A DNA stretch of 25,580 nucleotides. It comes from Conidiobolus coronatus NRRL 28638 (lineage: Eukaryota; Entomophthoromycota; Entomophthoromycetes; Entomophthorales; Conidiobolaceae). Location of the stretch: NCBI GenBank assembly GCA_001566745.1, contig KQ964424.1:147748-173327 (forward strand), given 5' to 3'. The notes under the pieces are model-generated. The model worked only from the letters and a program-made list of their open reading frames with translations, searched no databases and was not told the DNA's origin. Shown piece after piece: positions 40 through 22,046 of this stretch. Position numbers and translations under genes: made by a program. The number at the start of each line of letters is the position of its first letter. The first letter of the stretch is position 1.

Positions 40-279
40 CTATCTGAAAACTATTTGACTACACTCCGTATAATTCGGCGGCGAAGGCCGGGGAGGCTCA
101 TATCTAGGCAAAGGCTCTATAAACTCTCTACTCAATCTCCTCTCGTTATACCCATAACCATCTTCATCATCAAGATAACCACCAAACCATTTATCAAACT
201 TCGAGTAGCTAAATGCTAAAACGATGATTATAATGAATACTATAAGTAAAAAAACTCCTAATATTATAAAATCTATCAT
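40..279 (-). CDS. PY-tail single-pass membrane microprotein, paralog 1 (79 aa)
   Basis: Small membrane protein of no named family I recognise. Residues 4-24 form one continuous hydrophobic helix. Lysines follow it (K27, K30) and no basic residue precedes it, which predicts the C-terminus in the cytosol. A Gly/Asp/Tyr/Glu linker (35-48) leads to a tail with LPRY (57-60) and PPNY (67-70), the two forms of PY motif bound by WW domains of Rsp5/NEDD4 ligases. The protein ends soon after TECSQI (71-76). The start is the only ATG before the helix. Four paralogs follow at 1681, 3166, 4545 and 7147. Shared tail sequence despite different codons argues for selection on the protein. A role as ubiquitin-ligase adaptor, like yeast Sna3 or Rcr1/Rcr2, is inference. 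Confident it is a real gene, unsure of function. Confidence 0.82.
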   Translation of the reverse strand: MIDFIILGVFLLIVFIIIIVLAFSYSKFDKWFGGYLDDEDGYGYNERRLSREFIEPLPRYEPPRPSPPNYTECSQIVFR

Positions 280-342
280 TTATATGTATATTAATTATTA
301 TATGTATTTTTATTTTTATTTTTATTTTTTATTGTTGATATA

Positions 343-359
343 GAGCTTGTATTTATACT
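343..359 (-). promoter_or_regulatory. TATA element of PY paralog 1
   Basis: On the minus strand this reads AGTATAAATACAAGCTC and lies about 70 bp upstream of the ATG at 279. The nonamer TATAAATAC occurs at a similar place upstream of all five PY-tail genes, and the AAGCTC extension is shared with the copy at 7147. A (TTTTTA)-type tract at 306-330 lies between it and the start codon. Confidence 0.6.
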
Positions 360-377
360 CTTTAAAATTTATTAATT

Positions 378-592
378 CAAATTACTTTTAAAAGCCAATT
401 AGTAATGTTATTTTGTTTGTTGTTTAAAATAAATTATTGAGGAAATACTACATTAGTAACATAGAAATAATAAGTACTTTAATTGACTAAATTGGAATAT
501 TAACTTGGCATAAATTAAATAATTAAAATCTACATATTTTTGCCAAAACTAACTTGTATATGAATAAGCAGATAAAAGTTAAACGATTAATT
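378..592 (-). promoter_or_regulatory. Distal upstream region of PY paralog 1, partly conserved
   Basis: Short blocks match the upstream regions of the other paralogs. CAAATTACTT at 378-387 resembles a block 25-29 bp beyond the TATA element in paralogs 2 and 3. TTTTTGCCAA near 537-546 matches the TTTTTGCCAA block of the 3166 gene. GCAGATAAAAGTTAAACGAT at 568-587 resembles the GCAG...CGATAAT block of the 3166 and 7147 genes. Spacing is shorter than in those genes, so the match is partial. Confidence 0.35.
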
Positions 593-742
593 ATAGGGTA
601 AAAGCTAGCGATATGTGGCTATTATTAATATAAAAGCATTGTTAATATTCAAAATTTTAATTAAAGCGGATAATCTTATAATACCATATCTATACATTAC
701 CAAATATAACTAGTAGCATTGATAATTTAATACTCGTGAAGA

Positions 743-1025
743 AAAAAATTAATATGAGAGGTTCTGGTTAACTTGACTTAAATTTGCGTGAGCTCAGTTC
801 AAATTTTTAATTTTAAAATAAGCTAGTTATTATCTTATATATCCATTATTTAAAAGAGAAAACTTAGTAATAATACACTAAAATACTATATTACCAATAA
901 TATCTAAAAAAAGATATTATTTAATACAATATAAATTATAAAAATAGAAAAAATTTAAACTTGCCCTAAAAAAATTTTGGACAAATTTTCCTTGCTTTAA
1001 CCAGAATCTTTCATATTATTTTTGA
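743..1025. repeat. Dispersed repeat copy A with terminal inverted repeats
   Basis: The ends form an imperfect inverted repeat of about 25 bp: AATATGAGAGGTTCTGGTTA at 752-771 pairs with the reverse complement of TAACCAGAATCTTTCATATT at 999-1018. A second copy in opposite orientation lies at 21578-21833. Its ends align with this one over about 30 bp (AGATTCT..GTTAAA..AAGGA) and about 48 bp (a block containing TGAGCTCAGTTCAAATTTTT here). There is no open reading frame of note. Size and ends fit a MITE-like non-autonomous element or a diverged repeat, but no clean target-site duplication is visible. Confidence 0.5.
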
Positions 1026-1680
1026 ATAATATTTCTTCAGGTTAATTGGAATTAATATGTCATTTTATTAAAAAAATCATTTTTTTTATTATTTTGATCT
1101 AATTTTGCAAAAACTCTCTCATTAGTATATATAAATTATTATATATTGGCTTTTATAGTTCAAATTTTTTTATCTTATCATCTATTATTCAACACAAAAA
1201 CATGTCTAAAATACAAATTAAAAAGCATAAAAACTATCCATATAAATTTAGTAGTTAATAGTTAACTCCACATTAATAATATTCACTATGCAAAAGAACA
1301 GTGCTCCACTAACTCATTCCATGAATAGGCCATTCTATTAAGAAAAACTATTTAGATAGTTAATATTTTCTTATATATTTTATAAACTTTATCTATAATA
1401 TTCTATTGTTATAAACTAAATTAAACCCATGAAATTTGTAGGTTAATATATCATTTAATCGATATATACTGTCTATATGTGCAATATGCAAACTAATAAG
1501 CTGATTTTTAATTTTTTGAACGTTGCATTACATAGAAACAGCCACTAGGGACGCAGAATAGGAATTATTTATCTTTTAAAAAATAAACTTTTAAAAGTTT
1601 CGGTTAATCTTATGTTTTATTTTATAAAATACATGATTTAAATTATATAAATATTATTATTAGATTATATAACTCTATAA
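1026..1680. other. Gene-free AT-rich spacer
   Basis: This spacer has no ORF, tRNA or coding-like composition. It contains short palindromes such as AAACTTTTAAAAGTTT near 1586. It covers the 3' flank of PY paralog 2. I see nothing functional that I can support. Confidence 0.5.
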
Positions 1681-1926
1681 TTAACTACTACTGCAAACAA
1701 TTTGACTACACTCTGTATAACTTGGCGGTAAGTACCGTGAAGGTTCATATCTAGGCAAAGGCTCTGTAAACTCTCTACTCAATATCCTCTCATTATAGCC
1801 ATAATCATCTTCTGTATTAAGGTAATAGGCAATAGATTTGTCTAGCTTCCAGTAAGTAAAAGCTAAATAAATTAGTACTAATACTAATATAAATATTAAA
1901 AATACAAGTGCTAACAACTCTATCAT
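1681..1926 (-). CDS. PY-tail single-pass membrane microprotein, paralog 2 (81 aa)
   Basis: Paralog of the gene at 40-279. The first ATG is at 1926; the frame stays open seven codons further upstream to a TTG, but that is not a credible start in yeast. The membrane helix covers residues 4-24 and is followed by lysines at 27 and 30, predicting a cytosolic tail. The linker DDYGYNER matches paralog 1 almost exactly, and the tail carries LPRY (57-60) and PPSY (67-70) ten residues apart, then TECSQIV. Outside the tail the helix sequence differs from the other copies. Probable partner of an Rsp5-type ubiquitin ligase by motif; function is inferred. Its promoter has TATAAATAC about 50 bp upstream. 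Confidence 0.82.
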   Translation of the reverse strand: MIELLALVFLIFILVLVLIYLAFTYWKLDKSIAYYLNTEDDYGYNERILSREFTEPLPRYEPSRYLPPSYTECSQIVCSSS

Positions 1927-1971
1927 AGTGTTGTAGATATTAATCAATTATCTAGTTTTACTGCTATGATA

Positions 1972-2023
1972 TTTGTATTTATACTATTATTATTGGAATA
2001 ATATGAGTTACTAATAAAGTTAA
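1972..2023 (-). promoter_or_regulatory. Core promoter of PY paralog 2
   Basis: Contains TATAAATAC on the minus strand (plus-strand GTATTTATA, 1975-1983), about 50 bp upstream of the ATG at 1926. About 29 bp beyond it lies GAGTTACTAATAAAGTTAA (2005-2023), which resembles GAATTACTTAATAAAGCAAT at the same spacing upstream of the 3166 gene. Confidence 0.55.
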
Positions 2024-2106
2024 ACATATTTATTAGTTTTATTGCATGCTTTATAATAAATAATAACTATAATTTTGTTTTTGTTTTTATAAATAATAAA
2101 AAAATT

Positions 2107-2249
2107 TATGCAAATTATTAAAAAACCAATATTCCGAAAGTTAATGTTAGACAGTTTGTCAATAAACTCAAAAATTATTTTTAACACTTCCAAATAAAAA
2201 CAATTTGGTATCGTATCAAGTGTTTATAGTCTAGATTATCTAACTCTTA
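2107..2249 (-). promoter_or_regulatory. Conserved distal upstream block of PY paralog 2
   Basis: Aligns with the upstream regions of the 3166 and 7147 genes. The plus-strand segment contains ATGCA, an A-run, then GTTAGACAGTTTGTCAATAA (2146-2165), against GTTAGACATTTTTGCCAATA in the 3166 gene. Further on, GTGTTTATAGTCTAGATTAT (2220-2239) aligns with the TTTAATA..CGCAG.TATCA block of the other two. It starts about 180 bp upstream of the ATG. Whether it is a shared activator site or residual duplication homology cannot be told from one genome. Confidence 0.45.
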
Positions 2250-2743
2250 TTTAATAACCATTATAATATTATTAAACTCACTTTACGTCGAAGTTATTAT
2301 TTATGCTAATTTTAGCTTATCTTTAAACTAATTTCGGATATAACACGTGCATGCATAGCAGAATAAGTGCTACTCTTTTGCATAATAAATATATAGTTTA
2401 AATAACATTTAATTAACTATTCTCACTTTCTCTAGTCCAATAATTGTCCAAATTAAAAAAATCAGTTTATAATGCTGTGCACTGTAATTTAAAATTCATT
2501 TTATCAAGTTTTTATATCTAATTTAATAACTCAAACCATACGTTAAAATCGGCATAATGACCGCTACAGTATAAGTTTTTGTTTATTTTAAAATCTTCTG
2601 GCATAAAGTAAAATAAATAAATAAAAAATGTTTTTGGGTAAAAGAATTCTAAAAAAGCAATATAATAAAGATAATTAGAGAATAAAGAAAAGAGCGAAAG
2701 GAATAGTATATAAATTTTAAATGAAAAAAGACTGGTATATTAG

Positions 2744-2789
2744 AAATAATAATAATAATAATAAAAATAAAAAAAATAAATAAATAAAA
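2744..2789. repeat. AT microsatellite
   Basis: A run of about six AAT units followed by A-rich TAAA-type repeats, in the 5' flank of the first tRNA-Leu gene. It is a simple sequence of no further evident role. Confidence 0.7.
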
Positions 2790-2891
2790 CAAATTTATTT
2801 GTCAAAGTCAATAAAAAATTTTATTTGTTATTATGTTTGACTTATTTGTTTATTATGAGAACTATTAAATTTGAATCAAGTTAACTAACAA

Positions 2892-2973
2892 GCTACTATG
2901 GCCGAGTGGTCTAAGGCGGGTGACTTAAGATCCCCTCTCGAAAGAGGCGTAGGTTCGAACCCTACTGGTAGCA
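2892..2973 (+). tRNA. tRNA-Leu(UAA), copy 1
   Basis: Seven-base-pair acceptor stem (GCTACTA with TGGTAGC), discriminator A, D arm GCC/GGC, anticodon loop CTTAAGA with UAA, long class II variable arm closed by a GAAA loop, and T arm GTAGG-TTCGAAC-CCTAC. No intron. A run of six T at 2978-2983 is the Pol III terminator. The 82 nt are identical to the copies at 6050, 7917 and 21965. All have an unpaired position (T29 opposite C41) in the anticodon stem. It reads UUA, expected to be a very common leucine codon in such AT-rich DNA. Confidence 0.96.
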
Positions 2974-3165
2974 TTTCTTTTTTGCTAATAGCTTCCTATT
3001 TCTATCAACTACCTTTATTAATCTCCATTCCCACTCATCCTAAAATGCTGCCAAATTAGTAATTTTATTATGTATATTACTTTCAAATATTCTGTTTAAT
3101 TTTCAAAATTTTGCGGTTATTTTACATTATATGGTATTATGAATTAAGTTAATATCTTCTCAGCG

Positions 3166-3432
3166 CTAATCACTATTACAAATGATTTGACTACACTCAG
3201 TATAATTTGGTGGCAAAGATGAAGTACGCTGATATCGTGGCAAAGGCTCTGTAAACTCCCTACTCAATCTCAGTACAGTATAGTCATTATAATTATCATT
3301 TCCGCGGATGGCATCGTTGTCGTTAGTGTTATAATCCATCCACTTACCCATCCTTGAGTAAGTTAAGGCTATACCGCCCAGTATAAATATTATAATAAGT
3401 ATTAAAAATATTAATGCTAGTAATTCCGACAT
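3166..3432 (-). CDS. PY-tail single-pass membrane microprotein, paralog 3 (88 aa)
   Basis: Same family as the genes at 40 and 1681. The N-terminal MSELLAL closely matches MIELLAL of paralog 2. The hydrophobic helix spans about residues 4-24 and is followed by R27 and K30. The linker is longer here (Asn/Asp-rich, 33-50) and accounts for the extra length. The tail has LPRY (64-67) and PPNY (74-77), ten residues apart as in paralogs 1, 2 and 5, then TECSQII. The residues after LPRY (QRTSS) differ from the EP..P of paralogs 1 and 2. tRNA-Leu copy 1 lies 190 bp past the stop on the other strand. Upstream sequence is the best conserved of the family. A ubiquitin-ligase-binding role is inferred from the motifs only. 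Confidence 0.82.
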   Translation of the reverse strand: MSELLALIFLILIIIFILGGIALTYSRMGKWMDYNTNDNDAIRGNDNYNDYTVLRLSREFTEPLPRYQRTSSLPPNYTECSQIICNSD

Positions 3433-3481
3433 CTTTTTTGTATATATTAACTAATTTATTTTTGTTATTGGTATTGAGTTT

Positions 3482-3525
3482 GTATTTATACTTTGATTTT
3501 AGTTTGAATTACTTAATAAAGCAAT
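3482..3525 (-). promoter_or_regulatory. Core promoter of PY paralog 3
   Basis: TATAAATAC on the minus strand (plus-strand GTATTTATA, 3482-3490) sits about 50 bp upstream of the ATG at 3432. GAATTACTTAATAAAGCAAT (3506-3525) lies about 25 bp beyond and has counterparts in paralogs 1, 2 and, less closely, 4. Confidence 0.55.
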
Positions 3526-3630
3526 TTAATAACAGTTTCTGAGCTTTATATTGTATAGATAAACTTAATATCAACTGATAACTGTTCTAATTTTTCTTAA
3601 TGGTAAAATAAATTAGCATTTTTAAAATTT

Positions 3631-3768
3631 AATGCATATCTGAAAAAACTTTTATACCGAGGAGTGTTAGACATTTTTGCCAATAAATTTTCTGCCAAGT
3701 AAAAGTAAAATCTGGGCTCTGTATTGAGCATTTAATAATCGCAGTTATCAGAACTTTTATCGATAATT
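3631..3768 (-). promoter_or_regulatory. Conserved distal upstream block of PY paralog 3
   Basis: This block of about 137 bp aligns end to end with the reverse complement of 6807-6941 upstream of the 7147 gene. It starts with AATGCA, then has an A-run, TTTTATACC, GTTAGACATTTTTGCC, a variable middle, and AATCGCAGTTATCAGAAC followed by TATCGATAAT. The two ends are far better conserved than the middle. It begins about 200 bp upstream of the ATG. The arrangement fits an upstream activating region, or recent duplication. Confidence 0.55.
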
Positions 3769-3831
3769 AGGTATTTTACTTGAATTTATTACATCACCAT
3801 TATTCAAAGTCAATAATTATTCAGAAAGAAA

Positions 3832-3987
3832 TACACCCATTTTTTGTTATAAGAAAAATGTTGTAATCTTGAATTTCGCCAAAACTAAGTAATATGCTCC
3901 TTAAAATGTGCTTTTACTCAAAATCTATTGGATAATAGGCTCCGATTCATGATGACAGCATTTTTCTTATAACGAAAAACGGGTGTA
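3832..3987. mobile_element. TA-flanked terminal-inverted-repeat element (MITE-like)
   Basis: Arms of 29 bp at 3832-3860 and 3959-3987 are inverted repeats with 27 of 29 matches. Each arm has TA at its outer end, then CACCC, and an inner TTATAAGAAAAATG. The 98 bp between the arms carry no ORF. A TA at both outer edges is what insertion by a Tc1/mariner/pogo-type transposase leaves, and TTATAACGAAAAA-like ends recall pogo/Tigger elements; both points are inference from family knowledge. The pair could instead be a hairpin RNA or a terminator. Only one copy is seen in this window. Confidence 0.5.
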
Positions 3988-4544
3988 ATTTGATGCAATG
4001 GATAATATAGGCAAGTTAACCACTGCTATATACAAACGGTTTAATGTAAATCAAGCTCCATTAATTGACTAGCTTTTTTAATCAATTGATATTTAATTTA
4101 ACTACAGAACATTGAGTTTATCATTTAATTGTTAACATTCTAATCATAACTATATAATAAATTAATCAATTTTTTATATTTTTCATTGATCTATTAACTA
4201 ATATTTTACTTTTTTGGATAATTATCACACTTATGCAAGGTATATATAACTGGTATATTAACTGAAAGAATTTTATTAAAAATTAATTTAAACTTTAGCA
4301 GAGTTCAACTGTTTTTATCAAAAAGATACTGTAAGCGTTAATAGATATGATAGCTTTTATATTAGTCAATCAATTGACTAATTTAATTAATTTTTCATTT
4401 TACATTAATATTTTTGGTATATTTCATTATAATTTGAAATTAATCACATAATATATAATATATAATATATAATATATTGTATCTCATATTAAAATTTAAA
4501 CATTTATATTGCTAATAAATAATCACATATATTTTTATTGTATA
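3988..4544. other. Gene-free AT-rich spacer with a 7-bp tandem repeat
   Basis: No ORF or RNA gene is visible. At 4448-4475 the heptamer ATAATAT is repeated four times in tandem. The region lies between the inverted-repeat element and the 3' end of the 104-residue gene. Confidence 0.5.
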
Positions 4545-4859
4545 CTAATTAATAACTCTAACTTCGATCCTTTCTGTTTCATTTGCAACTCCTTCGCGAT
4601 CACCATCACCATTCCTCCTACTTTCCTGTGAACTTTCTGCACAATAATCCGGTGGCGCTTCATAAACTGGTAAAGGATCCAAAAACTCTAAATTCAAATC
4701 ATGTAAATTCCCCTCAGCCTCTCTATTCTCTCTTACAATCCTCCTCAGCTTCTTATTTTTATACCAATTTAAACTCAACAAACCAACGATAGCAACAACT
4801 ACAACGCTAAGGGATATTAATACTAGATCGGATATACTGGTCCCTGGTATGTATGACAT
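4545..4859 (-). CDS. PY-tail single-pass membrane protein, divergent paralog 4 (104 aa)
   Basis: A divergent member of the PY-tail family. A short polar N-terminus precedes a hydrophobic helix at about residues 11-32. The strongly basic KNKKLRR (34-40) follows, giving a clear N-out, C-in topology. The tail has the shared core L..EF..PLPVYE, with LPVY at 63-66 and PPDY at 69-72. The two PY motifs are only six residues apart, against ten in the other four members. TECSQI is not kept, although CAESSQE may be its remnant, and an acidic/polar tail of some 30 residues is added. Composition is less AT-biased than in the other four. It could be the older form from which the short copies arose, or a separate adaptor. 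Topology and motifs are seen in the sequence; Rsp5 binding is inferred. Confidence 0.8.
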   Translation of the reverse strand: MSYIPGTSISDLVLISLSVVVVAIVGLLSLNWYKNKKLRRIVRENREAEGNLHDLNLEFLDPLPVYEAPPDYCAESSQESRRNGDGDREGVANETERIEVRVIN

Positions 4860-4900
4860 TGTTTTTTTTGTGAAAAAAGTTTAGTTTTGATGAAGGGAGG

Positions 4901-4967
4901 GTATTTATATGGATCTGTAAGCATGATTGTTTTAAGTCATATGAATTTTAGCTCCAAATTACTTAAT
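4901..4967 (-). promoter_or_regulatory. Core promoter of PY paralog 4
   Basis: TATAAATAC on the minus strand (plus-strand GTATTTATA, 4901-4909) lies 43-51 bp upstream of the ATG at 4859. CAAATTACTTAAT near 4956-4968 resembles the block found beyond the TATA element in paralogs 1-3, but at twice the distance. Confidence 0.45.
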
Positions 4968-5257
4968 TATTAGATAATATTATTAATTTTCATAATGATA
5001 ACTCCTTGCATTTTAATATTCTATTATTAATATTTTTTACACTAGTGAATGTTCTATATTTAGTATATTTGAAATATAAAAAATCTAATATTCGGATAAA
5101 TTGTTCAATTTAATCAAGTTTAAGCGGTGTAAGATTTTGAAAAAAGAACAAAAAGCTGATTAGAAGATATATATTAAGTAAATAAATTAATCGAGGTATA
5201 ATTTGCTAAAACAAAATATGTAAAAATAGAGACATATTAGCAAAAAGTATGAAGAAA

Positions 5258-5330
5258 CGCCCAATGTGGGGCTCGAACCCACGACCCTCAGATTAAAAGT
5301 CTGATGCTCTACCGACTGAGCTAACCGGGC
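5258..5330 (-). tRNA. tRNA-Lys(UUU)
   Basis: A 73-nt cloverleaf with acceptor GCCCGGT/ATTGGGC (two G-U pairs), D arm TTAGCTCAGTCGGTAGAGC, anticodon stem TCAGA/TCTGA, loop CTTTTAA with UUU, T loop TTCGAGC and discriminator G. It has no intron, unlike the Saccharomyces tRNA-Lys(UUU). An A-run at 5242-5246 is the T5 terminator on the minus strand. Confidence 0.96.
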
Positions 5331-6049
5331 TTGCACTTTAGAAATTTTTTTAAAATATAGCTAATTTTTTTGCTTCCAATAACACTGTTTTCCTATATCA
5401 TTAACTTTTATATACTCATTTACCATAATCTTTTTTCAATTCATTACTCATTCAATAACAATATTCTATATTTTTTACGCTCTCTGTACTTACATTCACT
5501 TAATTCCCATTATTAATAATTTATTATTCTACTATGTATAATACTTTTCAATTGTTGATTATACTTCAAAATTGAAATGGAATTTCTCACCCATTCCTAA
5601 CAATAACATTGATATTAAGCTATAATATAAAGCGCTTTACTGTATATAATATCGTATAATTTTATTTATTATAGCTAAAACTTAGCATGAAAATTTAACA
5701 TAATACTAAAAACTACAACTCATTTTTACAACTAACTATGCTACTTTAACTGGATTATTAATGAAATATAAAACCAATTTTCTGGAGTCCATTATCAGTA
5801 TACTAATATTAGTATAACTAGTAAATTTAAAATTATTTGCAAAGCTATATAAATAAATAATAGCAAAGAAAAATTTCTGAATATTTATATACAAAACCGC
5901 TAAATAAAAAGTATAGTGATTTAGCATAAAAAACTGGCGCATTATAACAAAATTTTTAAATACATAGATAAATTAATTATTAGTCATTAAACTTAAGCTA
6001 AATATAATTAAAAAATATGAATAGAGATATAATTAAGCCAAAAAGTAAT
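5331..6049. other. Gene-free AT-rich spacer
   Basis: Lies between tRNA-Lys and tRNA-Leu copy 2. It holds one 68-codon open frame (5736-5942, minus) rich in Phe, Ile and Tyr that looks like chance in AT-rich DNA. No other feature can be supported. Confidence 0.5.
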
Positions 6050-6131
6050 TGCTACCAGTAGGGTTCGAACCTACGCCTCTTTCGAGAGGGGATCTTAAGT
6101 CACCCGCCTTAGACCACTCGGCCATAGTAGC
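6050..6131 (-). tRNA. tRNA-Leu(UAA), copy 2
   Basis: Identical over 82 nt to copy 1 at 2892, with the same anticodon UAA, class II variable arm and T29/C41 mismatch. The 3' flank, read on the minus strand, is ATTACTTTTTGGC, with the T5 terminator at 6040-6044. This short flank is shared with copies 3 and 4, showing that duplication or gene conversion reached slightly past the gene. Confidence 0.96.
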
Positions 6132-6806
6132 TTATTAGATAAATATACTCAAATTTGATATATAATTATTTATTATTTTTATATTTTATTATATCATTTT
6201 AGTTCAATTTTTACTCTTTTCTTTATTTTTCTTTTTTCATCTCTTTATTTATATATATCACTATATAATTTTTCCATTATTATATTTCTATTTTTCATAT
6301 TATAACAACATTTACAGCAATTATATATCATAAGTAATATAAATTTGGCAATAAATATTAATAATATCTTTAAACTATTGAAATTATTTGAATGATATTA
6401 TAGATATCATAGTTTATAGTCTCATAATATTTATTTCTATCAGAGTTACTTGGATTATTTCAATTTTTATATTGCAAATGTACATGGCAATTAATCAAAT
6501 AACATGACGTCAAATAGTTATTTTAAAGAGCATAGTATTAAATTTATGTTAATTGATTAGAATTTTAGCACATAGAATAATTTAACAAATATTACTATTG
6601 TGGTTAATATATATAATTCTTTGAGTAAAAAGCTAGTTAACTTTCGAATATGTTTGTATCAACCGCTGCATAATGAGGTACTTAATATACTCCTCAATTA
6701 AATAATAAATATTTTTGTACTGATTTGTATACTTATATCACGCTACTTTCACTCAATTATTGATGCTAATAATTATAATGAAATTAATTTAAGCAAATAT
6801 CTATCT
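6132..6806. other. Gene-free AT-rich spacer
   Basis: Lies between tRNA-Leu copy 2 and the conserved upstream block of the 7147 gene. No ORF or RNA gene can be supported. Confidence 0.5.
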
Positions 6807-6941
6807 ATTATCGAAAGAGTAATGATATCTGCGAATATTAAACACTCTTTACAATAGTGGCAAAGATATTTTTTTTGTTATAATTTATATGAAAAATGTC
6901 TATCACTCTACTTGGCATAAAAAGATTTTTATGGTTTGCAT
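6807..6941 (+). promoter_or_regulatory. Conserved distal upstream block of PY paralog 5
   Basis: Collinear with the block upstream of the 3166 gene, in the orientation expected from gene direction. It holds ATTATCGAAAGAGTAATGAT and TCTGCGAATATTA (6807-6840), then AAAAATGTCTATCACTCTAC (6892-6911), TTGGCATAAAAAG and TGCATT. It ends about 205 bp upstream of the ATG. The inner part of the block is poorly conserved. Confidence 0.55.
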
Positions 6942-7083
6942 TAATTAAATTTTATTTTATGCTAAGCTAGTTTGCCATTAAGCATATACAAAATTTATTA
7001 GTTTATTTGTTAATTACTGGTTATAAAACTAAAAAATTATTTTTAATTTACCTTTTAAGCAACCCAAGTTATTTTTGGCAACA

Positions 7084-7101
7084 GTATATAAATACAAGCT
7101 C
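7084..7101 (+). promoter_or_regulatory. TATA element of PY paralog 5
   Basis: GTATATAAATACAAGCTC includes TATAAATAC and the AAGCTC extension shared with paralog 1. It lies about 53 bp upstream of the ATG at 7147. Confidence 0.6.
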
Positions 7102-7146
7102 CATAACACCATCTTAATAATAAAGATTAATTAATATTTACAAAAC

Positions 7147-7389
7147 ATGCAAAATTTACTAGTATTTGGATTTTTAACAATTGTATTAATGTTCATGCTT
7201 TTTAGCTTAGTTATTACTTGCTCGAGGTTAGATAGACGAGTAGGTTATTACACTGGTGATAGTGACTATGATTATAGCGCAAAGAGATTGACTAGCGAGC
7301 TTACAGAGCCTTTGCCTAAATACGAGCTTCCCCAGCCTGTACCACCAACCTATACGGAGTGTAGCCAAATAATTTGTATTAACAATTAG
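7147..7389 (+). CDS. PY-tail single-pass membrane microprotein, paralog 5 (80 aa)
   Basis: The only family member on the plus strand. A hydrophobic helix spans about residues 4-24, followed by a basic cluster (R27, R30, R31) that places the tail in the cytosol. The linker is Asp/Tyr-rich (GDSDYDYS). The tail has EPLPKY (54-59) and PPTY (66-69), ten residues apart, and YTECSQII. Sequence identity outside the tail is low, so this copy is older than, or under different constraint from, paralogs 1 and 2. Its promoter shares both the TATA nonamer and the distal block with the 3166 gene. tRNA-Leu copy 3 lies about 530 bp past the stop in convergent orientation, mirroring the 3166 gene and tRNA-Leu copy 1. 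Function is inferred from the motifs. Confidence 0.82.
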   Translation: MQNLLVFGFLTIVLMFMLFSLVITCSRLDRRVGYYTGDSDYDYSAKRLTSELTEPLPKYELPQPVPPTYTECSQIICINN

Positions 7390-7916: not shown

Positions 7917-7998
7917 TGCTACCAGTAGGGTTCGAACCTACGCCTCTTTCGAGAGGGGATCTTAAGTCACCCGCCTTAGACCACTCGGCCATAGTAGC
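7917..7998 (-). tRNA. tRNA-Leu(UAA), copy 3
   Basis: Identical over 82 nt to copies 1, 2 and 4. The 3' flank on the minus strand is ATTACTTTTTTGTCC, containing a T6 terminator. No intron. Confidence 0.96.
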
Positions 7999-9583
7999 TT
8001 AATAAAAAAGCGACTAAAATATTAATAATTTTTATTAAATTCAAACTTTATATCTATATATCATCTTTACCATTTTATTTTTCATTCCCTTCCTCCTAAA
8101 CTTTATCATTTTTTTTAATTATCTCTCACATTTTTATTAATAATTCCTTATACATTAATTGCTTCTATAATGAAGTATATCTCATATTTTGAATTTTTCT
8201 TAAAAATGGATTGAATTAATATTTGACAATATGGTATAAATCTTTAAAATAATATAGTATATACTTAATACAATTGTTAATAACCAAGTTAAATATTGAA
8301 GGGGCGAAACGAAGTTATTGGCTCAATATTGCCTATAGCTATATATCTAACATGAATAATAATGGACTTAATTAATTGACATGGGCATTTTATTTGAAAT
8401 TAGCTTAAATTTCAGTTTTAGTTAATTTTAAGTTAATTTTAATGTATATTATTTTTTAATAGTCGCTACTGATAGCTTAATTATATAATTAGCTTTAAAA
8501 TATATTCACTAATAGATATAATTGCATTTATGTATTTGCATTATATAAGTTAAGCTATTATGAAGCTGAACCTAGTTATTAATATTTAGATATTTAAATG
8601 AAATTTAATAAATATTTTAAACATCAATAAATTATTATAATTTTTAACTAAATATAGTTATAATGAGTATAATGGATATACTTTTATATTAGAATAATAT
8701 ATATTTGTGTATCTATGATCAATAGCAATCATTACAATACAAGCGAGATATTTTAAGAATCTAGTTACTTATAATTGAATATTTGCTAGGTCAAAAAATG
8801 GTTTTTTTAGTAATTTATGTGCAACAGAAAACTTGATCGTTGTCAACAAAAAATATTTGAAAAAGGTTTTCCAGTAATTAATAATTAATCAAAATTTAAT
8901 AAATAACAATTCAAAATTAAAAAATTGAATATAGTAAGTGTATTTCAAAGCTAGAGAATAATACTGTTAGAGGAAGAGATATCGATAGTGAATATAACTA
9001 TTTAAACATTAATAAACTTATGTCCAGTAAAAACAAAATTTGATTGAGATCTGATCTGATTTATTAAAATCTTGATAGTAGAGATCTATAATGATTTGCT
9101 TAAAAGTAGAAAATAAATTGATCTCTACATCTCATAAATTCGATAGAATCTTTTTATATTTAAATAAATATTTCGCCTAACCTATATAATAAAATATCTA
9201 AAATTTTTATAATCAAAAAAGATCCAAAGATTTAGAGATCTAAGTTCTGATCTAAATTGAAATAATAAATATTCAAATTATCCAAACCAGAAAAAACTAG
9301 AATAACAAAACAGATCTAGATCTGCTTTATTCTAGAAATTCTAAATAGTATTAATAGAAACATATCTTAGATATAAACTTACTTGATAAACAGTAGAGAG
9401 TTATACGCAAATAATATGATAGAGAGTATTCTAAATATAAAGTTAAATAGATTATCTTACACTAAATAGCTATGAATATAGTACACTTTGGGGGCAAGAA
9501 AGAGTGAGTTTGGACAAAATGATATTTCGCTTTTTGAAGCCTCGATGGGAGAGAGCTCGATGATTTTATTAACAATGGATCGT
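7999..9583. other. Gene-free region with a GATC-rich segment
   Basis: About 1.6 kb between tRNA-Leu copy 3 and the 3' end of RPP1, without a credible ORF. From 9048 to 9322 there are nine GATC sites, mostly as AGATCT or TGATCT. They include the perfect 14-bp palindrome CAGATCTAGATCTG (9311-9324) and a hairpin with arms GTAGAGATC (9078-9086) and GATCTCTAC (9120-9128). Their origin is unknown. Confidence 0.5.
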
Positions 9584-10229: not shown

Positions 10230-10772
10230 TTAATTAACTTTATTCTCTTTATAGTAAACAGCCCAGTCGTTTTTATTAATCTGGTTCCTTTTAATTAGTA
10301 ATTGATCAATATTCTTAATAGTTTCATTATTAAAACAACATTCTGTTAACTCTTCTCTCTCGCTATCTATAATGCAAAGCATTAAGTTTAGCGAACTTGA
10401 TTGAAATTGCTCTATAGCTTTTTTTGAAAATCCTAAATTACTAACTAATACTCCCAAGTATAGCAAATTTTTATGATGTATCCTATTCTTATATTGAAGT
10501 AAACTACCCTCAAATTCTCTAACTCTATGGGGTCCTAGTAAGCGTTTTTCATGCTTACACTGTCCTACAATATCCAAGTTTAGCTTTTGTGTAAGCTTTA
10601 AATACCCTAAAAAATCAACACCTTTATCGTTACACTGTCCTGTTCTAACGCTTTTTATATTCAATTTAGTCTTAAGGGTTTCAATAGTTAAGTGCTCAAA
10701 TTTTGTCCCTTTTTCAACGTTGCTCATAGGAACTGTAGTGTATCTCCTTATTAAATGCCTCATCATCATCAT
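10230..10772 (-). CDS. RRG7: RRG7-like mitochondrial protein with restriction-endonuclease-like fold (180 aa)
   Basis: Resembles the fungal Rrg7/DUF2034 family, mitochondrial proteins required for respiratory growth. The N-terminus is basic with little acid (RHLIRRYTT, 5-13), as in a matrix-targeting presequence. Residues 20-100 show the fold's signature: E26 in the first helix, G-x-x-x-D-K-G-V-D53-F-L-G, then V-G-Q71-C-K73, and later GPHRVREFEG (80-89). This is the D-(Q/E)xK arrangement of PD-(D/E)XK nucleases, with Q71 in place of the usual acid. Yeast Rrg7 is longer (about 240 residues), so this is a compact form. The gene opens with four consecutive ATG codons, and a further Met at 16 would remove the presequence; the first ATG is chosen. 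Nuclease activity is not established for the family as far as I know. Confidence 0.72.
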   Translation of the reverse strand: MMMMRHLIRRYTTVPMSNVEKGTKFEHLTIETLKTKLNIKSVRTGQCNDKGVDFLGYLKLTQKLNLDIVGQCKHEKRLLGPHRVREFEGSLLQYKNRIHHKNLLYLGVLVSNLGFSKKAIEQFQSSSLNLMLCIIDSEREELTECCFNNETIKNIDQLLIKRNQINKNDWAVYYKENKVN

Positions 10773-12958: not shown

Positions 12959-14502
12959 GTTCAAAGTAAGTTAGTTTTTTTTGTTAGGATAAGAGTAAAA
13001 GTACAAAGGAGCGAAGCGGAAGCGGATTATTTTAAGTTATAAAGAAAGTTAAATGAAGCGAAATGATAATTCGTAGTGATTAGCTTCAGCTCAACTGAAA
13101 GTAAAAAGAGCAGTCCAATAATAAATGAATGTGTTAGTTTTATAAATGTAACCTAATAAAATAAGCAGCTATAAAGAGCTTTAGGTTGTATTGGGTTGAT
13201 TATAGAGTAAAGGGAAAGGATTTAACACTGAAAAGATAAAGAGTGAGAGAAGCGATATTTAAATACAGGGTTTAATTAGATTATAAAAATAAAAAATTTT
13301 CTCCCTATGTTATCTAAAACCAAATCAATTTCCATTCAGCATAATTAATTTCACCTCTGCTAAATTTAGTAACTTAGCCAAATTTCCCCCTCTAATTGAG
13401 CCAATTAAGTTAAAGGGAAGAGTTATGGGAAAAAACTTGGGTCAATTTTTAGAAATTTGGGCCCATTGATATGGTAATTTCGGTCATATGATTGGACTGT
13501 GGCCCCATTAGACCAGAGGATCAGCATTTATGATTATCAGTGAAAGTGAAAAGAACACTTGAAACAGCTGTCAAAACTAGTGTTTACCACCTGTAATAAG
13601 CGCAATGAAATCACAATTTATATGTCTTATAGCTTAACCTCCTAACTTTAACCAATAGTGAAATTATCCAAAAGTTGATTATGACCCCAATAATTCAAAC
13701 AATAGAATAATAAACTGTTTCAAAATCAAGTGTAAGCAAAATTAACAGACTCCGTTTAATATAAATTAATTGATATGATAGGTCAAATCTGATAAACTAA
13801 GTAAAAATTATCGACTCCAGATTATTTGTTCTATTGGCGAGAATAAGAATAAAAGATTTAGGGGGAGATACTGGCAGATATTGGGGAGAATCTTATTCAA
13901 AAGGTTCAGATTTATTTATTACAAGTGGTGTGAAGGTTTCAAGGTTAATACAAGTGGTTAATATTATAGTGGTTCATATGGATACTGCTCAAGACGGATA
14001 AATTTATAGCTATAGTCGTTAGACTTATTATTAGCTATGGGATAACAGTTTAATAAACGCCCCGTTTTTTAAATAAAATTTAAGCAAGTGACAATTAATT
14101 TTAAATTATGCCCATTGATAGTGAATAATTGGCAAGTGATCTAAAAATCAATTGAGAAAGATTTTTACAAAAGATAAAAATAGGTAAAAATATATTAATA
14201 ACAGGTAATAAGGTATATAGTTTAATTTGATATATTTGATAGATAGGGTTTTTCTCGTTAAGAATAATGGTTTTTAAAAAGGGGGAGAAAATACGAGATT
14301 TTATTGATAGTAGAGGCCTGATCTTGATGGATCTCTTTAATTCGAAATTTAATTAATTATAGGTTTATTCTAAATATTATCTAGTTTTTTCTTAAGTACT
14401 AAGAGCTATTTAATCAGTTATAATTCGTATCTAAACCAATAATCTAGACATTTTAAATATACATCATATAGTGGAATATACATTAATTAATTAATGCATA
14501 CT
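12959..14502. other. Long spacer upstream of the 200-aa gene
   Basis: About 1.5 kb between the start of the unrecognised gene and the 3' end of ARL2. The part at 13380-13620 is less AT-rich than the rest (for example GGGCCCATTGATATGG and GTGGCCCCATTAGACC) but has no ORF, tRNA fold or snRNA motif I can identify. It may hold regulatory sites or an unrecognised RNA. Confidence 0.4.
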
Positions 14503-15213
14503 TTAATCAAATAGATAAATTCTAGTAGCAATATCCTTTATAATCCAGTCTACAGCGTCTAATACATTATCACCTGTTACACCAGAGCAGGGGTAAATAG
14601 CCCAGTGATGCTTTTCAATTTTTTCAAGTTCTAAGTAGGTTTGAATTTCTTCAGCTGTGAGTGCCCCCTTAATATCTTGTTTATTAGCTAGAATTAATAC
14701 TGTTGCACCTGCTAATCTCTATGAAAATCTAGATTAATATACGTGCTAAATGAGAGATAATATGCCACTTACTTCTTGGTCCATAAGTTGAAATAACTCA
14801 GTTTTACAGTCTTGAAGTCTAGTTAAATCAGAGCTATCAACTACCCAAATTAAACCCTCAGTATTTTCAAAATAATTTTTCCAATAAGCTCTAATACTCT
14901 TTTGACCACCAATGTCCCAAAAATCAACGGTATAGCTAAGGAAACAATGAATGTTTTGTATAAACAAATTTCTGTTATATACTTACCCGTCATAGTCAAA
15001 ACTTTGAATATTAAACCCTAAAGTAGGAGAAATTTCGCTAATATCTTCTCCTTTTAATTTTTTTACTATAGTAGTTTTACCAGCATTATCTAAACCCCTA
15101 GAATATGTTAGTAAATTTAAATTAGAATTATGGAATAATGTTAGTTACAAAATCAAAACTCTCATTTGTTTTTCTTTTAGCTTTTGTTTACGAATAATGG
15201 TTAGTAATCCCAT
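14503..15213 (-). CDS. ARL2: ARL2/CIN4-family small GTPase, four exons (184 aa)
   Basis: ADP-ribosylation-factor-like GTPase that, in the ARL2/Alp41/Cin4 family, works with tubulin cofactors in making microtubules. Exons are 15149-15213, 14987-15097, 14773-14935 and 14503-14718. Introns are 51, 51 and 54 nt with GTAACT, GTAAGT and GTAAGT donors; intron 1 has a perfect TACTAAC branch site. Splicing gives 184 residues, exactly the length of human ARL2. It starts [11 protein letters not shown] and has the P-loop GLDNAGKT (23-30), switch I PTLGFNI (46-52), WDIGGQ (65-70), NKQD (125-128) and CSGVTG. Gly2 is present, but ARL2 proteins are generally not myristoylated. It matches ARL2 far better than Saccharomyces Cin4 does. 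It diverges from the MMS22-like gene, with tRNA-Val between. All splice junctions keep the frame and the family alignment. Confidence 0.95.
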
Positions 15214-15374
15214 ATTTAGAATATATATGTTATAATAGAGCGTGTAAATGTAAAAGAATATGTATTGATGATTGAATAAAAGATGAAGTCATCAATATAA
15301 ATTTATAAATGTTAAATGCTAATAACTATTATGGGATTGAATAAATTTAAATTTTAATCATTGATTAATTGTAA

Positions 15375-15730: not shown

Positions 15731-18700
15731 ATGAGTGGTAAAAAGAGAGTTTTTGTATTAAGTAGTAGTCCTGATAACAATGAATTTGTATTGAACAGCG
15801 ATGATGAAGATAATATTCCTATTGCATCCGTTATCAATAACAGTAATAGCAAAAAGTCAGCTGAAAAAACATTATCTAATAAAAAAAAGTCAGCTGAAAA
15901 GAAGAGTAGAAAAAATCCAGAGTCGAATGCAGCTCAAGATGAGGAAAGTACTCCAAGAAAAAAGTACTCATTTCGAAAACGCGACCCTCAAAAGATACAA
16001 TATTACACGAATACTACATGGGTAAATCCTAGCACTATACCTGATGATCCTCGATTGGACTTAGATATTTTACTCGAGCCGGTCGAAGGCTTTGACTTTG
16101 AAGCAAAAACTAAGCTAAAGCATAAAGATCAAAGAGATGATGATTTTGTTCCTCCGACATTACCTACATCTCCAAACTCTCGTCCAAGAAAATATAGAAG
16201 ATTATTTAAAAGGAGCCTCTTATCTCCACCTCCTACAACGCCTCAAGCTAAGCAAAAGAGGACATGGGGCAAGAACCCTACTCGACTTAGGCTATCTGCA
16301 TTGAATTCAGAGAAAAACATATCAAAGTCTCAAACAAGAGAGTTTGATTATGACTTGCCATCTCCAACGCTACCATCAGTTGAAGAGCTACTAAGAATGC
16401 CTAACAACTCTCGAGATATTATGAGAACTCCAAAAACAAAACACTCATCAACACAATACACAATACCAAGAAGTCCTCCACTTCCATCAACGCGTCCCTT
16501 ATTATACTCTCCACCCAATACATTCGACAACCCTTCCGAATTCACATTTTCAGACTCTGAACTAGATTACAGACTTCCTTCCTTTGCTCTACCACCCCCC
16601 AAAAAATCCCAATCAAAAACTAGATCACGTCACTTAAATTTTTTCAAATTTTATGAATCGCAACTCCCAGAGCTTTATTACGTCCCTCAATGGCTAAGAT
16701 TAGTTAAACGCGCATATAAAACTAGAGAACGTTTAAATTTAACTATTTCGGATAGTCCTTGGGATAAGATAATAATTGAAGAAAGTGGAAAAACCAATGA
16801 ATCCCACTTAATTAGATTTAGACACCATTTCGGTCCTAGACAGTTCCCTAATGGATTACATATAAATAGATTTAAAATGCCAAAGTTAAGAAATTCCAGA
16901 ATAACTCCAGATAATAGAGGTAATAGGAATAATTCTTCTAATAAGGGCGTTGGTAGCGGTAATAGTAGAAATAGAGTAACATTCTCTAATAGGCAAACCA
17001 TTTCTGAATCACCAAGTTATTTGGCTAAGTCTATGTTTAAAGTTGTACCTCCTAAAATTTCAATTCAAACTTCTATGTATAAGCCACCAGCGGTTAATAA
17101 GTCTAAAACTGATAGTTTGAATATTAAGAAATTTCGAACAAGTGACAAATCAATGTCAATTAGCAGTACATCTGATATTATAGCGACAGCAATTCATTCT
17201 AATACTACTACCAGCGGAATTGGATCTATCAGTATTAATACTACTGCAAATTCTATACCGAATAATCAGTATACACTGGAAAGCAATGGTTCAAGTACAA
17301 GCAATATCCAGAATCATTCGGCTAATGTAAAGCATATATCAGCTGAGAATCAAGAAACCGTAGCTGATATATCTTCATCAGACGGTATCATTGTTAACCA
17401 TATAAAACCTTCTAATGGTTTACGTTCACGTCAAAATTTAAATACTGATAATGATACTGAAACTAATAATGCCAGCTCACCTAAGAATCTAATGGGTAAT
17501 GATAACTTTATGCGTGAAAGTGATGCTAATAAAGGGGCTGAAGATATATTGGCAAGGTTAGGATTTACTACCAGTAATATTAGTACCAATGTCGGCGTTG
17601 ATACTAGTAATTTGGAGAACTCGTTAACTAACAGAGGGATAAACTCGAGCTCGAATACTGCTTTATTTAAGAATTCTAACAATATTCAGACCAATAATAA
17701 TAACGTGGGATATAATTCCAATATACCAACTCATTCAAACTACACCGCGTACAATCCAAATTCCACATTTCACAATCCATTCCCTTTGCCAACGCGAAAT
17801 GATAATTTATTCACTCCTGCAATTACTTCGATTTCATCTTCAACTAATCATCAAAACCAAACATTCTCAACCCCTTTAAATCCTATTGAGTTTAACGATG
17901 TTGAAAGTGATCCTGTACCAGAAAAAAGTTTAATAGAAAGAAAATCTTGGTTAAATAAATTTAGTCAAAAATTATGGAAAATACACCACCCTGAGCAGCC
18001 AAAGTTACCAAAGTTAAAACGTGTTGAAGCTATGGCAATAGATTCTGTACAAAATATTCAAAAGTTTGAAGATTCTGCTGTTAGGAAGAATAATATTTTT
18101 AATTTTAATTTGGAATTTGAATCAGATAATGAAGATGAAGTTGAAGAGGTGATAGAGGATGTGATATTGCCTAGAGATGGTATTACAGGAGGTGATGGGA
18201 TTCAGTTTGAGTATTCAAGACCTGTCAAATCGTCTGGTACTAATTTGTTAGTGGAACCATTAGAAATTTCTAGCGATAACGAATCAAACAAAGACAATGA
18301 TAATGATGATGATGATCATTGGACAAATGATACATCAACACAATCTAGAAGTCGCTTAAGCAGGTCCTTGGTATTGCGATCATCTTCAAATTCTCCTCTG
18401 CAATCACCCATCAAAGATTTTGATTTGAGTAGGGAGTTATACTCTGACCACGTTGAAGCAGAGCCTAAAGTAATAGATATTAATAATTTCAACTTTAATG
18501 AATTAGATAGTTTAGGCGATGACGAGTTTGAATTGATGTCAGAAACTTGGACTGATAACAACGATGAAGACACTGAATTGGATTATGTTACTCATGGTGA
18601 TTTAAACGACTTTGATGGGGATGATTTGAATATAAGCAACGCCAATACCAACGATAATGAAACAATATATTTTATGGGCTCTGATTATAAATTAAAAATT

Positions 18701-21964: not shown

Positions 21965-22046
21965 TGCTACCAGTAGGGTTCGAACCTACGCCTCTTTCGA
22001 GAGGGGATCTTAAGTCACCCGCCTTAGACCACTCGGCCATAGTAGC
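21965..22046 (-). tRNA. tRNA-Leu(UAA), copy 4
   Basis: Identical over 82 nt to the three copies at 2892, 6050 and 7917, although it lies 14 kb away. Its 3' flank ATTGCTTTTTGCC is close to that of copies 2 and 3 and includes the T5 terminator. No PY-tail gene lies beside this copy. Confidence 0.96.

What the first reader, a model, noticed from the sequence alone, without database searches (positions are those of the whole stretch)
40..7389. A clustered family of five tiny membrane proteins with a dual PY-motif tail
Five genes in 7.4 kb encode a single membrane helix, a short linker and a cytosolic tail with LPxY then PPxY. Tail residues are kept (EPLPxY, PPxYTECSQI in four copies) while the helix, linker and codons have drifted, so selection acts on the tail. 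PPxY/LPxY are established ligands of WW domains in Rsp5/NEDD4-family ubiquitin ligases, and small PY-bearing membrane proteins such as Sna3 and Rcr1/2 act as Rsp5 adaptors in budding yeast. The inference is a lineage-specific, expanded set of Rsp5 adaptors or decoys controlling membrane-protein sorting. I know of no described family with this architecture, but could not search.
Basis: partly seen in the sequence, partly recalled or inferred. Interest (0 to 1): 0.85.

Follow-up and report, generated by a model that had tools for sequence, protein, structure and literature searches.

The report
Tiny membrane anchors for ubiquitin ligase
A fungus of the insect-pathogen lineage Conidiobolus carries a cluster of five tiny one-helix membrane proteins that end in the same double docking signal for a protein-tagging enzyme, probably so that this enzyme can be brought to different proteins in its membranes.

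Summary
They belong to Conidiobolus coronatus (Entomophthoromycotina), not a budding yeast: joining pieces of the window reproduces CONCODRAFT_2579 exactly. Four relatives from unnamed sources exist; all 9 known members keep LPxY followed by [LP]PxY. That the helices merely drifted is half right: between paralogs they are 31% identical, between three putative core ortholog pairs 63%, though one pair is no higher than a paralog pair; the tail is about 70% in both. So: a common tail on largely copy-specific helices.

The held part of the genome encodes one WW3-HECT (Rsp5-type) ligase 21.5 kb away, a Bsd2/NDFIP homolog starting with EPLPNYD, and clustered short alpha-arrestins, 13 of 15 ending in LPxY then PPxY. 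Best explanation: single-pass membrane adaptors that recruit the ligase, the helix choosing client or place. Binding, expression and clients are untested. The architecture is a known kind (Commissureless, Rcr1/2, PRRG), but no Pfam model reaches its cut-off. Deposited models fuse or truncate four copies and lose three helices.

The parts
40..279 (-). copy 1 (c1), 79 aa: helix + linker + LPRY/PPNY tail
   Evidence: ORF; tblastn and alignment to the other copies; part of it lies inside deposited CONCODRAFT_2579
1681..1926 (-). copy 2 (c2), 81 aa: helix + LPRY/PPSY tail
   Evidence: ORF; relative P0002, 64% identical
3166..3432 (-). copy 3 (c3), 88 aa: helix + LPRY/PPNY tail
   Evidence: ORF; relative P0006, 53% identical
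4545..4859 (-). copy 4 (c4), 104 aa, divergent subtype: helix + LPVY/PPDY with 6-residue spacing and a longer polar C-terminus
   Evidence: ORF; relative P0007, 81% identical, tree support 100/100
7147..7389 (+). copy 5 (c5), 80 aa, opposite strand: helix + LPKY/PPTY tail
   Evidence: ORF; relative P0003, 61% identical, tree support 98/96
202..276 (-). membrane helix of c1 (residues 2-26)
   Evidence: hydropathy
1849..1923 (-). membrane helix of c2 (residues 2-26)
   Evidence: hydropathy; AlphaFold2 helix 2-52, mean pLDDT 92 and 96 in residues 1-10 and 11-20
3355..3429 (-). membrane helix of c3 (residues 2-26)
   Evidence: hydropathy
4770..4826 (-). membrane helix of c4 (residues 12-30)
   Evidence: hydropathy
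7150..7224 (+). membrane helix of c5 (residues 2-26)
   Evidence: hydropathy; 20 of 25 residues identical in P0003
70..111 (-). dual PY segment of c1: LPRY (111-100) and PPNY (81-70)
   Evidence: motif positions
1717..1758 (-). dual PY segment of c2: LPRY (1758-1747) and PPSY (1728-1717)
   Evidence: motif positions
3202..3243 (-). dual PY segment of c3: LPRY (3243-3232) and PPNY (3213-3202)
   Evidence: motif positions
4644..4673 (-). dual PY segment of c4: LPVY (4673-4662) and PPDY (4655-4644)
   Evidence: motif positions
7312..7353 (+). dual PY segment of c5: LPKY (7312-7323) and PPTY (7342-7353)
   Evidence: motif positions
343..358 (-). shared TATA-type upstream element GTATAAATACAAGCTC of c1; its TATAAATAC begins 78 nt before the ATG
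1975..1983 (-). upstream element of c2 (TATAAATAC at -57)
3476..3491 (-). upstream element of c3 (GTATAAATACAAACTC; TATAAATAC at -58)
4901..4909 (-). upstream element of c4 (TATAAATAC at -50, flanks differ)
7086..7101 (+). upstream element of c5 (ATATAAATACAAGCTC; TATAAATAC at -60)

Best explanation
These are five (at least) duplicated genes for minimal Rsp5 recruiters. A single N-terminal helix sits in the membrane with almost nothing outside. The cytosolic tail carries LPxY and, six or ten residues on, [LP]PxY, which dock WW domains of the cell's Rsp5-type WW3-HECT ubiquitin ligase. Bringing the ligase to the membrane lets it ubiquitinate membrane proteins that have no PY motif of their own and send them into the endosome/vacuole route. 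The tail is alike in all copies. The helix differs between copies and is on the whole kept between species, so it most likely sets the client or the compartment. Shown: the ORFs, the hydrophobic segment, the dual motif, selection on the tail, presence of the ligase gene, and the same ordered motif pair on an independent adaptor family (arrestins) of this genome. Inferred: cytosolic side of the tail, WW binding, ubiquitination of clients, and helix-based client choice. My step probabilities: real genes 0.97; tail in the cytosol 0.9; tail binds the Rsp5-type ligase 0.85; acts as adaptor rather than decoy or mere cargo 0.6.
For: Five ORFs with a common tail. 9 of 9 aligned members (5 window, 4 from elsewhere) have LPxY then [LP]PxY; spacing of the starts is 10 in 7 of 7 core members and 6 in 2 of 2 of the c4 type; P0006 has LPSY in place of PPxY, a swap that keeps the L/PPxY form. 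Over the six core pairs, tail dN is 0.12-0.24 with dS 0.41-0.92 and helix dN 0.36-0.66 with dS 0.28-0.94; tail dS is not lowered, so recent gene conversion does not explain the tails. Tail identity is 63/90 in three putative core ortholog pairs and 125/180 in six paralog pairs; helix identity is 47/75 against 47/150; the c4-P0007 helix is 22/25. In 9 of 9 members no basic residue precedes the hydrophobic run and basic residues follow it, which by the positive-inside rule (recalled) puts the tail in the cytosol. Three WW domains over the Pfam cut-off and a HECT domain lie in one gene at C7:124475-126276; no other contig has both among 4 WW and 8 HECT matches. The NDFIP/Bsd2 homolog has EPLPNYD, like EPLPRYE here. 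13 of 15 arrestin-like ORFs of the C8 cluster carry LPxY then PPxY at or near the C-terminus. In Comm the PY motifs cooperate and are needed for Robo1 ubiquitination (PMC12101832, passages).
Against: No binding, expression or localisation data. With c4 included, tail dN is 0.44-0.53 (dS 0.9-2.1, near saturation), so the strong tail conservation is that of the four core copies. Orthology is supported in the tree for only 2 of 4 pairs (c4-P0007, c5-P0003); the c2-P0002 helix (12/25) is no more alike than the c2-c3 paralog helix (13/25); for c5-P0003 the tail (18/30) is less conserved than the helix (20/25). The origin of the four outside proteins is unknown. The tails are short of lysine, which also fits a decoy. 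The Bsd2/NDFIP homolog shows one such motif, not the pair. The closeness to the ligase gene is a single post hoc observation. In Comm itself the need for Nedd4 in midline crossing has been disputed (PMC5578492, section 6).
Confidence: 0.52

Rival explanations
1. Decoys or rheostats: the membrane-tethered dual-PY tails compete with arrestins and other adaptors for the WW domains, lowering or relocating ligase activity, without bringing clients.
For: The cytosolic part is lysine-poor: 18 K of 67 K+R in 9 members against 532 of 843 in 15 other ORFs (the members are related, so the Fisher p of 8e-9 overstates it; the background is a convenience set, and the ligase piece itself is also low, 15 of 49). 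The same motif pair is on 13 arrestin-like ORFs that would be the competitors.
Against: A decoy needs no copy-specific helix kept between species, though that point rests on few pairs.
Confidence: 0.2
2. Regulated cargo or ligase activators in the manner of NDFIP or Sna3: proteins that position or open the ligase and are themselves carried to the vacuole, with no specific clients.
For: Sna3 of yeast is listed as an Rsp5 adapter and MVB cargo (PMC4276913, passages); a reference title there reports ubiquitin-independent sorting of Sna3 by direct Rsp5 binding. NDFIP proteins share Comm's PY-motif region (PMC12101832, passages).
Against: One helix only and no NEDD4_Bsd2 match; a separate Bsd2/NDFIP homolog exists. 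Does not explain copy-specific helices.
Confidence: 0.13
3. Secreted peptides: the hydrophobic segment is a cleaved signal peptide and the PY-rich part works outside the cell.
For: Small size, N-terminal hydrophobic stretch.
Against: Hydrophobic run of 19-24 residues with no basic residue before it and basic residues after it in 9 of 9; motif change from PPxY to LPSY in P0006 that keeps the WW-binding form.
Confidence: 0.04
4. Copies 1-3 are exons of one gene (CONCODRAFT_2579): one helix followed by three PY tails.
For: The deposited 182-aa model is reproduced exactly by GT-AG joins; the annotators may have had transcript support, which I could not see.
Against: The introns would be 1317 and 1527 nt and the first spans a tRNA-Leu gene (2892-2973); P0002, like c2, has its own N-terminal hydrophobic run (19 residues) in the part that the model cuts out; c1, c2 and c3 each have their own ATG and TATA-type element.
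Confidence: 0.04

Closest known systems
Commissureless (Comm), Drosophila; Pfam PF15957
   Same: Short single-pass protein with two cytoplasmic PY motifs, PPCY at 220-223 and LPSY at 229-232, which cooperate and are needed for Robo1 ubiquitination (PMC12101832, passages). It is the Pfam family that most members match weakly, 3 of 9.
   Different: At most 14.0 bits against a cut-off of 27; motif order is reversed; Comm is at least 232 residues long.
Rcr1/Rcr2 of budding yeast; Pfam PF12273
   Same: Fungal proteins with an overall structure resembling Comm and two PY-type motifs (PPSY, VPEY); VPEY binds Rsp5, with PPSY cooperating; likely in membrane-protein trafficking (PMC5578492, section 6).
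   Different: No RCR match in any of 9 members and none in the held part of the genome (no positive control rang, so absence is not shown); different motif spelling.
PRRG1-4 (vertebrate proline-rich Gla proteins)
   Same: Short single-pass proteins with LPxY followed by PPxY, the same order as here (PMC5578492, section 6 and passages).
   Different: A Gla domain, which is missing here.
Sna3 of budding yeast
   Same: Membrane protein listed as Rsp5 adapter and MVB cargo (PMC4276913, passages).
   Different: Recalled: two helices, Pmp3-type domain, one PPxY. No Pmp3 match here.
NDFIP1/2 and Bsd2; Pfam PF10176
   Same: Membrane-bound NEDD4/Rsp5 recruiters; the C. coronatus homolog begins with MEDGPPDEPLPNYD.
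   Different: Three-helix domain (recalled) with no match in these proteins.
Alpha-arrestins (ARTs)
   Same: Adaptors with PY motifs; 13 of 15 arrestin-like ORFs of the C8 cluster have LPxY then PPxY at or near the C-terminus.
   Different: Soluble arrestin fold, no helix anchor; spacing of the motif starts 18-25 residues instead of 10 or 6.

Membership tests
Commissureless (PF15957) | Score over the curated cut-off (27 bits) | tested here: not met
   14.0 bits (P0006), 13.1 (c2), 12.7 (c1); the other 6 of 9 members gave no match at E up to 1
Commissureless (PF15957) | One hydrophobic segment and two L/PPxY motifs after it | tested here: met
   9 of 9 members; cytosolic side inferred
Commissureless (PF15957) | PPxY before LPxY | tested here: not met
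   LPxY comes first in 9 of 9
RCR (PF12273) | Match to the RCR model | tested here: not met
   No match at E up to 1 in 9 of 9 members
NDFIP/Bsd2 (PF10176) | Match to the NEDD4_Bsd2 model | tested here: not met
   No match in 9 of 9, while the genome has a homolog at C5:209488-209850, E 5.7e-26
Shisa-like / STMC6 | Cysteine-rich domain outside the membrane | tested here: not met
   At most 15 residues precede the hydrophobic run in 9 of 9 (3-4 in six of them), none of them cysteine
Rsp5/NEDD4 adaptors (functional class) | Carries L/PPxY motifs of the form known to bind WW domains | tested here: met
   Ordered pair in 9 of 9; sequence form only
Rsp5/NEDD4 adaptors (functional class) | Physical binding to the ligase | not testable with these tools
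   Needs a peptide or pull-down assay
Rsp5/NEDD4 adaptors (functional class) | Ubiquitination or sorting of a client depends on it | not testable with these tools
   Needs cells
Rsp5/NEDD4 adaptors (functional class) | A WW-HECT ligase encoded in the same genome | tested here: met
   Three WW and HECT on C7

The most novel reading that the evidence does not exclude
An 'address code' of ligase recruiters: one common dual-PY tail mounted on a set of diverged, copy-specific membrane helices that are each conserved between species, so that each copy brings the same ligase to a different class of membrane protein or compartment by helix-helix recognition, in parallel with an equally expanded arrestin set bearing the same tail code.
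Probability: 0.3. Interest if true: 0.75.

Novelty: new variant of a known kind. Interest (0 to 1): 0.55.

Why it matters
How NEDD4-type ligases pick membrane clients that lack PY motifs is, to my knowledge, still an open question. Here is a small natural series of recruiters in which the docking tail is nearly constant and mainly a 20-25-residue helix and a short linker differ, each about 80-100 residues long. That is close to a ready-made test of whether the helix alone chooses the client. It would also extend PY-tail membrane adaptors, described in animals and budding yeast, to an early-diverging fungal lineage, alongside a large expansion of arrestins with the same tail pair. Practically, it points to deposited gene models that fuse or truncate these genes and lose three of the helices.

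Tried and rejected
Single-sequence search of 5.8 billion proteins with c2 found nothing. The five-member alignment found 7 proteins at E up to 10 among 779 candidates; the nine-member alignment found 6 among 1171 (P0002, itself a row of that query, was not listed), with no more distant relatives. So in that search, which needs shared short words, the family is confined to C. coronatus and four proteins from unnamed sources. Scans of viral contigs (33 pattern stretches, 0 confirmed) and of prokaryote contigs (10, 0 confirmed) gave no relatives; tblastn of c2 against plasmids gave none. Profile search of solved structures gave only chance matches, best E 0.76. PHROGs matches of the five window proteins are weak and scattered, best E 0.014. 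Chance-level Pfam labels (SHP, which at E 0.018 and 15.1 bits is the best single match of any member; Anthrax-tox_M, LapA, Apq12, ATP synthase 8, TMIE, EphA2_TM, DUF4636) were rejected: all are under their cut-offs, each in one member only, on stretches made mainly of the hydrophobic segment and linker. The source name 'HAMP domain-containing protein' of P0003 has no support in Pfam. A viral origin was considered; nothing found speaks for it, but phage and eukaryotic virus records were not searched apart from the viral-contig scan. AlphaFold2 gave one helix (2-52), high confidence only in the first 20-30 residues, and no structure in the tail; mean pLDDT 67.9, pTM 0.34, so no fold search was run. 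Positive selection on the helices is not claimed: helix dN/dS in the six core paralog pairs runs from about 0.4 to 2.2 on 14-16 synonymous sites. The upstream element was considered as a regulon marker and dropped: with one mismatch it occurs at 4 places in the held genome and its reversed control at 5.


Full report
WHAT IS THERE. The five ORFs are at the stated coordinates and align over helix, linker and tail. c1, c2, c3 and c5 are close relatives (38-58% identical in pairs). c4 is a divergent member, 25-29% identical to them. Within the window c1 finds it at residues 45-75 (E 8e-4), c2 at residues 17-75 (E 0.045), and c4 as query finds c2 over residues 4-78 (E 1e-4); in the whole held genome the same match has E 0.135. 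Eight columns are invariant in the 9 known members, in c2 numbering L49, E52, P56, L57, P58, Y60, P68 and Y70. None of 300 chance sequences gave such an ORF.

WHOSE GENOME. An alignment search returned CONCODRAFT_2579 and CONCODRAFT_2581 of Conidiobolus coronatus NRRL 28638. Joining pieces of the window at GT-AG sites gives the 182-aa CONCODRAFT_2579 letter for letter, so the window is this species or something very near it: Entomophthoromycotina, far from budding yeasts. The genome held here has 17.5 Mb in 186 contigs, against 39.9 Mb for the NRRL 28638 assembly (PMC12387763, passages and part of table 2), and some stretches are withheld, among them most of both flanks of the window. In the held part only this cluster shows members: 4 of 4 matches for c2, c4 itself plus a weak match to c2, and the 4 exact matches of a tail pattern; two further pattern matches elsewhere have 2 and 3 mismatches. 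The protein search found no further annotated copies, but divergent ones could be missed.

DEPOSITED MODELS ARE PROBABLY WRONG. CONCODRAFT_2579 fuses c3 with parts of c2 and c1 over introns of 1317 and 1527 nt, removing two helices and one PPxY; its first intron spans a tRNA-Leu gene. CONCODRAFT_2581 (P0004, 62 aa) lacks most of the helix of c5, although P0003 shares 20 of 25 residues of that helix. Each copy has its own ATG and a TATAAATAC 50-78 nt upstream. The longer element GTATAAATACAARYTC, with up to one mismatch, occurs at 4 places in the held genome, 3 of them in front of c1, c3 and c5; the reversed control pattern had 5 places, so the element marks common descent of these promoters rather than a wider regulon. 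I saw no transcript data.

SELECTION. In six pairs of core copies, tail dN is 0.12-0.24 and helix dN 0.36-0.66, with comparable dS (tail 0.41-0.92, helix 0.28-0.94); whole-ORF dN/dS is about 0.4-0.9; the four pairs with c4 are near saturation, with tail dN 0.44-0.53. Against the reading that the helix merely drifted, helix identity is 47/150 among core paralogs but 47/75 in three putative core ortholog pairs and 22/25 in c4-P0007, while the tail is 125/180, 63/90 and 35/48. This is not uniform: the c2-P0002 helix (12/25) is no more alike than c2-c3 (13/25), whereas c3-P0006 has 15/25 and c5-P0003 20/25. Tree support exists for c4-P0007 (100/100) and c5-P0003 (98/96); c2-P0002 and c3-P0006 rest on best identity only, and P0006 is open in the tree. 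The linker is little conserved in the core family in either comparison (45/129 and 27/65).

MOTIFS AND TOPOLOGY. 9 of 9 members have LPxY first and [LP]PxY second; the spacing between their starts is 10 in 7 of 7 core members and 6 in both c4-type members. The cytosolic part is lysine-poor: 18 K and 49 R in 9 members, against 532 K and 311 R in 15 other ORFs (members are not independent, the background is a convenience set, and the ligase piece L004 is also low). No basic residue precedes the hydrophobic run in 9 of 9 and basic residues follow it, which points to an anchor with a cytosolic tail rather than a cleaved signal (positive-inside rule, recalled). The model shows one helix and an unstructured tail.

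THE PARTNER AND THE OTHER ADAPTORS. The held genome has 8 HECT matches on 5 contigs and 4 WW matches on 2. Only contig C7 has both: three WW domains and a HECT in one gene, C7:124475-126276, with the HECT split by short introns (frames). Copy 1 starts at C7:147787, about 21.5 kb away. The one NEDD4_Bsd2 match is a protein with EPLPNYD near its start and no second L/PPxY in that ORF. Arrestin_C gave 20 matches, all in C8:242797-314958. Reading C8:240000-316020 (64,331 of 76,021 bases not withheld), 18 intact ORFs of at least 250 aa are listed; 19 of the 20 matches lie in 14 of them (339-354 aa), one match (269172) lies in none, and a fifteenth ORF (262389-263429) has the same tail but no listed match. 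13 of these 15 carry LPxY then PPxY at or near the C-terminus; the other two (270835, 311105) have LPxY followed by SPVY or APVY. Thus three unrelated protein types of this genome carry LPxY-type docking sites, two of them as the ordered pair. This is the best sequence evidence that the pair is a local ligase-docking code.

MECHANISM. Two L/PPxY motifs could engage two WW domains of one ligase. The eLife study of Comm shows what such a tail does: the motifs cooperate and are needed for Robo1 to be ubiquitinated and routed away from the surface (PMC12101832, passages only); the same field also holds a contrary report that Nedd4 binding is not needed for Robo control at the midline (told in PMC5578492, section 6). 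That paper treats short single-pass proteins with L/PPxY motifs, including yeast Rcr1/2, as functionally comparable. I therefore take these proteins as minimal recruiters, with the helix as the copy-specific part. A decoy role is the main rival, because the tails themselves offer few lysines.

NOVELTY. No Pfam model reaches its cut-off for any of the 9 members. Commissureless is the family matched by most members (3 of 9, at most 14.0 bits against 27), which I read as shared form rather than descent; the single best match is SHP with c3 (15.1 bits, cut-off 27), taken as chance. Literature searches 'Conidiobolus'+'PPxY' and 'Conidiobolus'+'Rsp5' returned no paper in the held open library, which lacks most subscription journals. 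The family appears undescribed, but the kind of protein is known: new variant of a known kind.

Noticed in passing
G000:C8:242284-315066 (L036-L043): Cluster of at least 15 short arrestin-like ORFs (14 with Arrestin_C matches), 13 of which carry LPxY then PPxY at or near the C-terminus; both strands, partly withheld. A large arrestin expansion.
   Followed up: partly
G000:C7:124475-126276 and window 40-7389: The only WW-HECT (Rsp5-type) gene in the held part of the genome lies about 21.5 kb from the PY-protein cluster, with ORFs between that read like adrenodoxin reductase, UDP-glucose epimerase and a DEAD-box helicase (names by reading of L014). Could be chance.
   Followed up: partly
window 2892-2973, 6050-6131, 7917-7998, 21965-22046: Four copies of tRNA-Leu(UAA), three of them interspersed with the duplicated genes and alike with some flank (90-97% over 94-123 nt), plus tRNA-Lys, tRNA-Val and tRNA-Pro.
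   Followed up: no
window 9047-9323: Five of the window's eight AGATCT sites lie within about 280 bases downstream of the acidic ribosomal protein gene.
   Followed up: no
window 10230-10772 (-): 180-aa ORF matching RRG7 and, separately, an Mrr-type restriction endonuclease domain.
   Followed up: no
window 14500-15215 (-): What looks like an intron-containing small GTPase of the ARF/ARL type, by reading only.
   Followed up: no
window 15731-20689 (+): 1652-aa ORF without introns and with no Pfam match at E up to 1.
   Followed up: no
window 3829-3990: Imperfect inverted repeat with 46-nt arms, 87% complementary, 70 nt apart, between c3 and c4.
   Followed up: no
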